Assembly (NCBI RefSeq): GCF_030913655.1
Contig: NZ_CP133189.1
Location: forward strand, 434,001-498,000
Direction of reading: 5' to 3'
Length of the DNA: 64,000 bases
Origin: Clostridium sp. MB40-C1
GTDB taxonomy: Bacteria > Bacillota > Clostridia > Clostridiales > Clostridiaceae
The notes under the pieces were generated by a model that did not search any database, was not told the origin of the DNA, and was given only the letters and a program-made list of their open reading frames with translations. Each line of letters opens with the position of its first letter. The first letter of the stretch is position 1. A program made the position numbers and the translations under genes. Of the stretch, positions 59,822 to 62,115 are shown piece after piece.

Positions 59822-60402
59822 GAGCCAATCCTCCTTTTCTATGTAATAGCTAGCTTGATTATATCACCAATTTTTTTATTATTCTAGTATTTTTGACATA
59901 TATACAAAATTTTAATACTATGTAAAGAATAAATTAATATTTTATGTGATATATAACCATTTTAATATTCCAATATTCTTTAAAGTGGTAGTAAAGAATG
60001 GTATTACCATGGATAACGATTTCTCCTAAAGGATAACGGCTTCTAAGGAGAAAAGTCCTAAGAATTCTGTTAATAAGCTTTAGATGGAGTAAAAATTTCC
60101 TCTAAAGCTTAGAACTCTGTTTATATTTCATCTAAAAAAGCGGTATATTATAGAATATACCGCTGAAATTTTTAAAAGAATTTTTGCTAAAAATATTAAG
60201 ATATATATAGTAAAAAACTTAAAATTTTTATAATTATCTTCATATTGTGCTATATTTTAAGAAAATGTAAAATTCTTGTCGCAACGAAGTTAATAATCTA
60301 AAACATAGCTTAAGGAGATTAAAGATAATTTTAAATAAATTATTATATAAAAGTCTTATATAAAGGGTTTAAATTTTTAATATATGAATTGAAAGCTATA
60401 TA
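59822..60402. other. Long non-coding stretch with hairpins
   Basis: Between the AI-2E-family gene and the small cysteine-rich gene. It holds a partial direct repeat GGATAACGATTTC/GGATAACGGCTTC (60011 and 60031), a 10-bp hairpin AAGCTTTAGA/TCTAAAGCTT (about 60076 and 60101), and a terminator hairpin AGCGGTATATT/AATATACCGCT at 60139-60164. The sequence 60031-60070 resembles 47803-47842. It could be an RNA gene ending at the 60139 hairpin; no family is recognised. Confidence 0.4.
60139..60172 (+). terminator. Terminator-like hairpin
   Basis: AGCGGTATATT at 60139-60149 pairs with AATATACCGCT at 60154-60164 around a 4-base loop, followed by GAAATTTTT. There is no gene just upstream on the + strand, so it may end an unannotated RNA; the A-run to its left also allows leftward action. 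Confidence 0.65.
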
Positions 60403-60564
60403 TTAGCAGCAGCAGCAAGGTAAACAGCAACAACAAGGTAAGCAACAAGAAGAGCCTACACCAGAAGCTAATAAACCTCCGCCACAGAAGCAGCATAATA
60501 TTATGATTAAGACGATTAGTATTAAAAGATCATCTCGTCTATTGTAGTTGCATGAGTTATTCAT
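60403..60564 (-). CDS. Small cysteine-rich membrane protein (53 residues)
   Basis: An unlisted short gene. ATG 60564 has AGGGAGG eight bases upstream. The product has a hydrophilic start (MNNSCNYNRRDD), a hydrophobic helix (about 13-23, LLILIVLIIIL), a CCFCGGG turn, and a C-terminal tail with LPCCCCLPCCCC. Fourteen of 53 residues are cysteine, including eight of the last ten. No family is recognised. A SigmaK-like promoter lies upstream, and a hairpin in the leader, so a mother-cell or spore-coat protein is inferred. The open frame, strong ribosome site and compositional bias support a real gene. Confidence 0.75.
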   Translation of the reverse strand: MNNSCNYNRRDDLLILIVLIIILCCFCGGGLLASGVGSSCCLPCCCCLPCCCC

Positions 60565-60622
60565 AATCTAAGCCTCCCTTCATAAGGAAGTTGATAAGGA
60601 CAACCGCTTGTCCTGTCAATAA

Positions 60623-60649
60623 TAGTATATGCACAAGTTAAAAAAGTGT
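60623..60649 (-). promoter_or_regulatory. Candidate SigmaK promoter
   Basis: On the minus strand AC, 16 bases, then CATATACTA fits the SigmaK pattern AC-N16-CATAnnnTA. -35 at 60648-60649 and -10 at 60623-60631. The predicted start is about 50 bases before the cysteine-rich gene. A stem GGACAA/TTGTCC with flanking pairs lies in the leader. Confidence 0.5.
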
Positions 60650-60726: not shown

Positions 60727-60972
60727 TTATTTGTTTTGTAATTCTTCTATAGCTTTAGATAATTGGTCTGGACAAGAGGTAGATTTATTTCCACATTTGA
60801 TACCTTTTAGCTTTTTTATAACTTCGTTAACATCCATGTCTTCTACAAGACTAGATATTCCTTGTAAATTTCCAGAACATCCCCCTACAAAAGAAACATT
60901 TTTAATTTTCCCATTTTCTAGGTCGAAGCTTATTTCTCTTGAACAAACTCCTGTAGGTTTATAAATATGCAC
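60727..60972 (-). CDS. TSCPD domain-containing protein
   Basis: An 81-residue TIGR03905/TSCPD-type protein: PTGVCSREISFD, VSFVGGCSGNLQGISSLVEDM and GNKSTSCPDQLSKAIEE with the eponymous TSCPD string. The domain is related to a C-terminal part of class II ribonucleotide reductases and is often found alone in clostridia. GTG 60972 lies eight bases after AAGGAG; GTG 60981 abuts that site and is unlikely. Four conserved Cys may bind a metal. Function unknown. Confidence 0.85.
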   Translation of the reverse strand: MHIYKPTGVCSREISFDLENGKIKNVSFVGGCSGNLQGISSLVEDMDVNEVIKKLKGIKCGNKSTSCPDQLSKAIEELQNK

Positions 60973-61046
60973 AAAAATCACTCCTTTTTATAAAATACAA
61001 TAAAAATTATAAAGGATTTAGGAGAACTATTCAAGGACAACTATAA

Positions 61047-61152: not shown

Positions 61153-61221
61153 TAAAAAAATATTAAATAATGAATCTCAAAATATATGGTTGTCACATAT
61201 TATAGTGTAGGGGGTGAGACT

Positions 61222-62115
61222 ATGAGTAATTTATATGTATGCAATACTTCTTCTGATAATATATCTGTAGTTAACATTGAAGATTTTAAAGAAGTTTATA
61301 AAATTCCTTTAAGTTATAATAGTGAGCATAGAATAGGTCCCCATGGTATATGTACCTATAAAGATAAGTTAATAGTTGCAAATAATTATAGTAATACTAT
61401 TTCAATAATAGATACTCAAATTAATAAAGAAGTTGCAAGTTATTTTATAGGTATGCATTGTAATGATGCTGCTGTATATAAAGATAAGGCTTATGTGATT
61501 TGTGGGGAACTAAATTACATTATAGTTTTTAATTTACTTACAAATAAGGTAGATGAGGAAATACCTTGCGGAAATTTGCCTCATAGCATAAAAATAGACA
61601 AACAGAGAAAACATATGCTTATAAGTAATTTTGAAAATGATAGTATAACTTTAGTTGACTTAAATGATAATAAAAACATTAAACATGTAAGAGTTGGAGC
61701 TTATCCTACCAAAGCTTTATTTACAATTGATGGGGATTATATACTTGTATGTGAAAGTAATATTGGAACGGATGTCAAAGGAAGCATAAGTATAATATCT
61801 TCAAAAAACTATAAATTATTGAATAGGATATTAGTTGGTAATTGCCCTGTGGACATGTACCTTGATACTTCTTATTGCTATGTTTCAAATTTTGGGGAAG
61901 GAACTATAAGCATGGTAGACATAAATTTATATAATGAAATTAAAAAAATTAATGTGGGTGGTATGCCGAGAGGTATAATAAAAAGATTAGATTATATTTA
62001 CGTTGGAGATAATTACAATAATATTTTAATAAGAGTTAATGAAAAAGAAGAGAAGAAAAGAGTCATATCCATTGGTGGAGAACCTAATGGAATGACTTTC
62101 TTTAGTCCTCTATGA
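61222..62115 (+). CDS. YncE-type beta-propeller protein
   Basis: A 297-residue protein made of repeated propeller blades, e.g. LYVCNTSSDNISVVNI, LIVANNYSNTISIIDT, MLISNFENDSITLVDL and CYVSNFGEGTISMVDI. It lacks a signal peptide, so it is likely cytoplasmic. ATG 61222 with GGGGGTGA is the start; ATG 61186 lies before it. Function unknown; propellers usually mediate binding. The 3' end overlaps the convergent DUF4364 gene by 14 bases. Confidence 0.85.
   Translation: MSNLYVCNTSSDNISVVNIEDFKEVYKIPLSYNSEHRIGPHGICTYKDKLIVANNYSNTISIIDTQINKEVASYFIGMHCNDAAVYKDKAYVICGELNYIIVFNLLTNKVDEEIPCGNLPHSIKIDKQRKHMLISNFENDSITLVDLNDNKNIKHVRVGAYPTKALFTIDGDYILVCESNIGTDVKGSISIISSKNYKLLNRILVGNCPVDMYLDTSYCYVSNFGEGTISMVDINLYNEIKKINVGGMPRGIIKRLDYIYVGDNYNNILIRVNEKEEKKRVISIGGEPNGMTFFSPL

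What the first reader, a model, noticed from the sequence alone, without database searches (positions are those of the whole stretch)
60403..60649. Unannotated 53-residue protein with 14 cysteines and a SigmaK-like promoter
The tail LPCCCC-LPCCCC has eight cysteines in ten residues, preceded by a hydrophobic helix. An AC-N16-CATATACTA sequence matches the SigmaK pattern. A strongly cross-linkable or metal-binding protein made late in the mother cell would fit a spore coat or exosporium cement. It is too short for usual gene callers.
Basis: partly seen in the sequence, partly recalled or inferred. Interest (0 to 1): 0.7.

Follow-up and report, generated by a model that had tools for sequence, protein, structure and literature searches.

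The report
Cysteine-tailed membrane miniprotein with folded leader
A 53-residue protein made of one membrane helix and a tail of cysteines, with no known family, is kept in the same chromosomal neighbourhood in every held species of its clostridial genus, behind a conserved sporulation-type promoter and an mRNA leader that folds up its own ribosome-binding site; it is probably a late spore-envelope component, which no experiment has yet tested.

Summary
ORF 60403-60564(-) encodes 53 aa with 14 Cys, the most Cys-rich of 260 window ORFs; 0 of 6,937 ORFs from Markov-simulated windows reach 20%. It is a gene: an orthologue with a ribosome site lies in the same neighbourhood in 8 of 8 held genomes of the genus, and a shorter one in one genome of another genus. 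It was found in 7 of 39 named loci of this neighbourhood. No Pfam or NCBIfam family fits. The constant core is Asp, membrane helix, CC-x-C-G, and a terminal CCCC; Cys number varies from 7 to 18.

The SigmaK-like motif alone is at chance level (9 in window, 6.6 expected), but AC-N16/17-CATATNNTA precedes all 8 orthologues.

New here: the leader holds two conserved hairpins. H1 begins about at the expected transcript start. H2 pairs the Shine-Dalgarno; at least 4 of its 5 bases are paired in 8 of 8, against 49 of 182 control genes.

Best reading: a mother-cell, membrane-anchored, disulfide-forming spore-envelope protein with a controlled or stabilised mRNA. Expression, location and cross-linking are inferred. 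Novelty: new variant of a known kind. Interest 0.5.

The parts
60403..60564 (-). 53-aa ORF (stop codon included): N-terminal head, membrane helix, Gly-containing link, cysteine tail
   Evidence: orthologues in 8 of 8 genus genomes; AF2 helix 8-29
60573..60578 (-). Shine-Dalgarno GGGAGG
   Evidence: GGAGG before the start codon in 8 of 8 orthologues
60574..60590 (-). Hairpin H2: anti-Shine-Dalgarno CTTCCTT / ATG loop / AAGGGAG, sequesters the ribosome site
   Evidence: SD at least 4 of 5 paired in 8 of 8 leaders, against 49 of 182 control genes
60591..60619 (-). Hairpin H1 near the expected transcript start: TTGACAGGACAA-GCGG-TTGTCCTTATCAA
   Evidence: found in 8 of 8 genus genomes
60623..60631 (-). 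-10 element CATATACTA (SigmaK/SigmaE type)
   Evidence: CATATNNTA in 8 of 8 orthologues
60648..60649 (-). -35 element AC of the SigmaK pattern, 16 bases before the -10
   Evidence: AC-N16 or AC-N17 in 8 of 8 orthologues
60139..60164 (-). Candidate terminator, 11-bp stem then TTTTT, about 240 bases past the stop codon (also listed as terminator-like on the + strand); conservation not tested
60727..60981 (-). Neighbour: TIGR03905 TSCPD-domain protein
61222..62115 (+). Neighbour: YncE-like beta-propeller with a CATANNNTA promoter-like site upstream

Best explanation
A genuine small gene, inherited within one Clostridiaceae genus. SHOWN: the ORF, its neighbourhood, ribosome site, promoter-like elements and two leader hairpins (as predicted folds) are conserved in all 8 held genomes of the genus. 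INFERRED: late in sporulation the mother-cell RNA polymerase (SigmaK, or SigmaE and SigmaK) makes a short mRNA that begins at hairpin H1. H1 protects the 5' end, as in the aprE leader. H2 folds the Shine-Dalgarno away and so damps or delays translation. The product sits by its one helix in a mother-cell membrane, most likely the outer forespore membrane. Its CC-x-C-G and terminal CCCC clusters then form disulfides, or hold metal, within the spore envelope that is assembled there.
For: Orthologues next to an AI-2E family permease, with the YncE-like gene in the same neighbourhood, in 8 of 8 genus genomes; a 39-aa, 11-Cys version between folC-like and TSCPD ORFs in a genome of another genus. Invariant core M, D, L, CC-x-CG, P, CCC..C. 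AC-N16/17-CATATNNTA in 8 of 8. RNA model R1, built on 4 of the 8 leaders, finds the other 4 in place at E 4.7e-4, 7.8e-4, 8.2e-4 and 0.065 per genome. H2: SD at least 4 of 5 paired in 8 of 8 against 49 of 182 controls; anti-SD word in 8 of 8 against 3 of 182. A SASP gene is near, and the YncE-like gene is preceded by CATANNNTA in 27 of 40 loci against 24 of 270 control ORFs. Cys-rich proteins are described as a characteristic feature of spore proteomes (passages of PMC7333573; also PMC3738446).
Against: I found no transcript, peptide or phenotype for this gene (literature searches listed under Tried and rejected). The promoter motif alone is at chance level. Purifying selection is weak in the one pair counted (5 synonymous, 5 non-synonymous changed codons, window against sister). 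No such ORF was found in 32 of 39 named loci of the same neighbourhood, so it is not a core coat protein. Covariation in H1 is modest. Topology is undetermined and the structure model is poor outside the helix (mean pLDDT 57.6). A sequestered SD argues against very high output.
Confidence: 0.5

Rival explanations
1. The H1 palindrome is a DNA operator, not an RNA structure: SpoIIID binds it just downstream of the -10 and blocks transcription until SpoIIID fades, which times the gene in the mother cell.
For: SpoIIID is encoded in this genome. A 10 of 10 match to WWRRACARNY (recalled consensus) lies in 5 of 8 leaders, against 7.5% of 800 random 75-base stretches; 9 of 10 is reached in 8 of 8 but also in 68% of the random stretches. 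GGACAAGC is kept in the leader of the other-genus copy too.
Against: G005 keeps a long stem but has lost the SpoIIID core; G001 has GGATAAGC; G006 carries insertions in both arms that preserve pairing. G-U pairs occur in 3 cells. H2 is not explained.
Confidence: 0.25
2. Metal- or thiol-buffering membrane peptide: the CCxC and CCCC clusters bind zinc, copper or an iron-sulfur cluster; any spore role is indirect.
For: Clustered cysteines; the neighbouring TIGR03905 protein carries four conserved cysteines by its family name.
Against: Cys number drifts between 7 and 18 and spacing is not fixed outside the invariant columns, unlike a defined metal site; none of the four neighbours searched is a metal transporter by family.
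Confidence: 0.15
3. A type I toxin-like hydrophobic peptide whose mRNA is kept silent by its 5' structure and an antisense RNA.
For: Short hydrophobic peptide, structured leader with sequestered SD. One sub-threshold Rfam hit to an antitoxin RNA (OrzO-P, 30.3 bits against a gathering score of 60) exists in L012, but 4.6 kb from the leader.
Against: One match in the own genome and the same neighbourhood in 8 of 8 genomes; no Rfam match at the leader in 6 loci scanned; the cysteine tail is foreign to such toxins (recalled).
Confidence: 0.06
4. Chance ORF: no protein is made.
For: Short, with no family match.
Against: Conserved frame, start, ribosome site and core residues in 8 of 8 genomes whose upstream DNA has diverged.
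Confidence: 0.03

Closest known systems
CsxA / CsxB / CsxC, cysteine-rich exosporium proteins of Clostridium sporogenes (PMC4942563, PMC7333573: passages read)
   Same: Cysteine-rich; clostridial; CsxA arrays are thought to be held by disulfides
   Different: CsxA has 299 residues and 25 Cys, CsxB 151 and 10, both identified in exosporium; ours has 53 residues, one membrane helix and a CCCC end, and is known only from sequence. Homology was not tested (their sequences were not fetched).
C. difficile CD1067, SigmaK-regulated cysteine-rich protein (PMC3738446: passages read; that it is the protein called CdeC is recalled)
   Same: SigmaK-type expression (shown there, only inferred here), cysteine-rich
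   Different: Abundant spore protein with experimental SigmaK dependence; larger (recalled); the passages read describe no membrane helix.
YjcZ / tiny_TM_bacill sporulation proteins (TIGR01732)
   Same: Tiny, one hydrophobic helix with Gly-rich flank (recalled)
   Different: No hit of our protein was listed with the limit set at E 10 (HMMER's filters drop most hits above about 0.1); those members lack the cysteine tail (recalled).
aprE-type 5' mRNA stabiliser of B. subtilis (Hambraeus et al. 2002; only its title seen in the reference list of PMC3997798)
   Same: 5' stem-loop together with a ribosome site
   Different: Here the ribosome site is itself in a hairpin; the transcript start is predicted, not mapped.

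Membership tests
Disulfide-forming cysteine-rich spore envelope proteins (CsxA, CdeC, ExsY type) | High cysteine content | tested here: met
   14 of 53 residues; 7 to 18 Cys in the 8 orthologues
Disulfide-forming cysteine-rich spore envelope proteins (CsxA, CdeC, ExsY type) | Transcribed in the mother cell by SigmaK | tested here: inconclusive
   AC-N16/17-CATATNNTA conserved 8 of 8, but motif frequency in the window is at chance and SigmaE is not excluded
Disulfide-forming cysteine-rich spore envelope proteins (CsxA, CdeC, ExsY type) | Present in purified coat or exosporium, released only by strong reductant | not testable with these tools
   needs proteomics
Disulfide-forming cysteine-rich spore envelope proteins (CsxA, CdeC, ExsY type) | Sequence homology to CsxA, CsxB or CsxC | not tested
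   their sequences were not fetched; CsxA and CsxB are far longer
YjcZ / tiny_TM_bacill (TIGR01732) | Match to the family model | tested here: not met
   not among the hits listed in NCBIfam; no hit in Pfam
Type I toxin-antitoxin toxin | Short hydrophobic peptide with SD sequestered in the mRNA | tested here: met
   (predicted folds only)
Type I toxin-antitoxin toxin | Overlapping or divergent antisense RNA | tested here: inconclusive
   no Rfam match at the locus in 6 loci; promoter-like sites on the + strand near 60377 are weak (9 of 12), and 17 sites were found in the region against 10.1 (sd 2.8) in shuffles
Known Rfam leader or riboswitch | Match to an Rfam model | tested here: not met
   cmscan of 6 loci that hold the leader: 2 sub-threshold hits, neither at the leader; the loci of G006 and G001 were not scanned

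The most novel reading that the evidence does not exclude
The leader is a new cis-acting RNA of sporulating clostridia. H1, with its largely conserved GGACAAGC arm, is recognised by a mother-cell factor, and this opens H2, so that a thiol-rich membrane peptide is translated only at a defined late stage: a translational checkpoint on spore-envelope cross-linking.
Probability: 0.18. Interest if true: 0.75.

Novelty: new variant of a known kind. Interest (0 to 1): 0.5.

Why it matters
Control of spore morphogenesis is described mainly at the level of sigma factors (general knowledge, not surveyed here). A tiny, family-less, cysteine-tailed membrane protein with a conserved SD-sequestering leader offers a compact system in which translational timing and disulfide assembly of the spore envelope can be tested together. 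It also suggests that clostridial genomes hold further short TM-plus-Cys gene families; a second one, in neighbouring copies, turned up in another genus during this work.

Tried and rejected
Pfam, NCBIfam, PDB and Rfam: nothing for the protein or leader. Idea that the H1 leader marks a regulon: rejected. In the 8 genus genomes the only other hit below E 0.01 is L042, a plain palindrome without the conserved loop, before a MATE-like gene (my reading of its sequence). In 206 family genomes, scored with the tool's stricter filters, no hit outside the genus reaches E 0.01; the ten between 0.01 and 0.1 were read by eye and none was accepted. L049 (E 2.3), which shares a GCCGAG loop, was not followed up. 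Weak family-level protein hits were read: most are longer proteins or tiny TM proteins with a similar helix-plus-Cys stretch and were not counted as orthologues; a second partial hit in G007 (E 9.8e-4, in a 223-codon frame) was not examined. A pseudoknot between the H1 loop and the bases after the SD was considered by eye; not present in all, dropped. AlphaFold2 gave only the helix. Literature: searches; no listed title or passage read describes this gene, but most listed papers were not opened and subscription papers are not held. Passages of PMC7438776 were read and gave nothing used here.

Full report
WHAT IS THERE. The minus strand of the window encodes MNNSCNYNRRDDLLILIVLIIILCCFCGGGLLASGVGSSCCLPCCCCLPCCCC at 60564-60406, with the stop codon at 60405-60403. 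It has 14 cysteines in 53 residues. Among 260 ORFs of at least 30 aa in the window it is first by cysteine fraction (0.264; the second is 0.129). None of 6,937 ORFs of at least 40 aa in 60 Markov-1 simulated windows reaches 0.20. A helix is predicted at residues 8-29 by AlphaFold2 from 8 sequences, with mean pLDDT only 57.6 and residues 30-53 below 50. Pfam gives no hit and NCBIfam one at E 0.19 (11.5 bits against a cut-off of 90). The PDB has no sequence relative up to E 1.

IT IS A GENE. A protein search of the 8 held genomes of the genus matched 7 at E up to 1, the own genome included; the match in G001 was false and G006 had none. Reading the same neighbourhood in G001 and G006 through their TSCPD genes found the orthologue in both, so the count is 8 of 8. 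In each, the ORF starts with ATG behind a GGAGG ribosome site and is followed on its strand by an AI-2E family permease (in G001 and G006 by my reading). The YncE-like gene is in the neighbourhood in 8 of 8. The TSCPD (TIGR03905) gene is the direct upstream neighbour in 5 of 8 (G000, G001, G003, G004, G006); in G005 and G002 other ORFs lie between, and in G007 no TSCPD gene was found there. The proteins are 43 to 55 residues long with 7 to 18 cysteines. Invariant in the alignment are the start Met, an Asp and a Leu at the head of the helix, CC-x-C-G after it, a Pro, and CCC..C near the end. The doubled LPCCC(C) of the window is shared only with its sister G003. Comparing these two, 5 changed codons are synonymous and 5 are not, with 7 of 11 base changes at third positions: constraint is visible but weak. 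The own genome holds one match; in the family-wide search G007 had a second, partial one that I did not examine.

HOW FAR IT REACHES. A scan of named genomes anchored on the YncE-like neighbour returned 39 loci. The cysteine ORF is in the 7 whose contig lengths equal those of the genus genomes: Clostridium brassicae (G003), C. ganghwense (G004), Clostridium sp. ZS2-4 (G006), C. thermopalmarium (G007), C. homopropionicum (G005), C. bovifaecis (G002) and C. aestuarii (G001). It was not found within the fetched flank (about 6 kb) in the other 32, where a + strand ORF of the size and place of folC (not identified by a search) usually stands next to the TSCPD or YncE-like gene. The finders required a ribosome site and, at least 9% Cys, a hydrophobic run. 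A family-wide profile search (206 genomes) gave 38 genomes with a match at E up to 0.05. Beyond the genus I accept one as orthologous: G097, of another genus, with a 39-residue, 11-Cys ORF between folC-like and TSCPD-like ORFs (by reading; the profile match runs past its stop codon). G078 has a similar 44-residue ORF in another setting. The other matches are partial.

PROMOTER. As a motif it means little: 9 matches to AC-N16/17-CATANNNTA in the window against 6.6 on average in simulated windows. In front of the orthologues it is constant: CATATNNTA in 8 of 8, starting 65 to 77 bases before the start codon, with AC 16 or 17 bases upstream in 8 of 8. Control ORFs of the same loci carry CATANNNTA within 75 bases of the start in 24 of 270 cases; the YncE-like neighbour does in 27 of 40, its start being taken as the start of the match. 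SigmaE and SigmaK share this kind of -10 (recalled), so the compartment (mother cell) is better supported than the exact sigma factor.

THE LEADER. Between -10 and start codon lie two hairpins. H1 (window 60619-60591) begins 3 bases after the -10, about where such transcripts should start (inference). A covariance model (R1) built from 4 of the 8 leaders, chosen because the aligner placed their arms in register, finds the other 4 at the right place in whole-genome searches at E 4.7e-4, 7.8e-4, 8.2e-4 and 0.065. On the fitted alignment (8 rows, 7 distinct) 87.0% of cells pair, against at most 56.9% when slid; 3 pairs change on both sides. The covariation is modest: 49 of 500 shuffles reach that number of pairs, 199 of 500 the number of pair types, 6 of 500 the covariation score, 2 of 500 the percentage paired; and an alignment fitted to a structure leans towards it. 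RNAalifold on the plain MAFFT alignment predicted only part of H1 (7 of its pairs) plus 5 pairs of H2, with one pair changed on both sides. H1 appears specific to this gene: no other convincing copy in 8 genus or 206 family genomes.

H2 (window 60590-60574) pairs CTTCCTT with AAGGGAG and so buries the Shine-Dalgarno. At least 4 of the 5 bases of GGAGG are paired in 8 of 8 leaders, against 49 of 182 control genes with a GGAGG site in the window and 39 named loci; an anti-SD word stands upstream in 8 of 8 against 3 of 182. For G006 the 45-base fold pairs the SD with other bases; the longer fold gives H2. The words were chosen after seeing the leaders; the controls include homologous genes from related species; genes without GGAGG and duplicate leaders were left out. 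The 8 leaders are not independent either (G000/G003 and G002/G007 are nearly identical), so about six separate cases stand behind 8 of 8. Folded together with the whole ORF, the window's RNA is not unusually stable (z -0.97). Rfam has no match at the leader (6 of the 8 loci scanned).

MECHANISM. The most economical reading joins a late mother-cell promoter, a protected and translationally damped mRNA, and a membrane-held cysteine tail. [quoted passage not shown] difficile is reported to form multimers resistant to denaturing conditions (PMC3738446, passages, data not shown there). Our protein could tether such a layer to a membrane. That step, and the direction in which the tail points, are inference: the head has too few charges to call topology. 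The DNA reading of H1 as a SpoIIID operator remains a serious rival: SpoIIID is present and 5 of 8 leaders carry a perfect site to the recalled consensus, against 7.5% of 800 random stretches. G005, with a long stem but no SpoIIID core, and G006, with insertions in both arms that keep pairing, favour RNA. Both may be true.

VERDICT. Its functional story is plausible and partly supported.

Noticed in passing
L141-L152; first seen in L029, L115-L117, L119, L123, L125: A second tiny family in another Clostridiaceae genus (g21): short proteins (27-37 residues in the six aligned) with a basic head plus VIIIILLLLCCGCGC-like helix end, matched at E up to 0.001 in all 13 genomes G131-G143 of that genus with 2-4 matches each, often about 140-205 bases apart; no match in the 8 genomes of the window's genus.
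   Followed up: partly
L110-L113, L122 (and L020-L025): Longer proteins (108-115 aa) in other Clostridiaceae genera with a similar helix ending in C-x-C, an Arg/His-rich stretch, a second helix and an NTNIIxxxT-like end; no Pfam or NCBIfam family above its cut-off for the four of these tested (L020, L021, L023, L025).
   Followed up: partly
window 61196-61222: CATATTATA followed by a GGGGGTGAG ribosome-type site before the YncE-like gene; CATANNNTA within 75 bases in 27 of 40 loci, suggesting that this widely conserved propeller gene is also a mother-cell gene.
   Followed up: partly
L049 (G002:C1:3559655-3559695, minus strand): A stem with a GCCGAG loop like that of H1 lies elsewhere in the C. 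bovifaecis genome, at E 2.3 only.
   Followed up: no
window 60010-60060: Intergenic stretch downstream of the gene with an imperfect CTCCT...AGGAG inverted repeat, seen by eye; no Rfam match.
   Followed up: no
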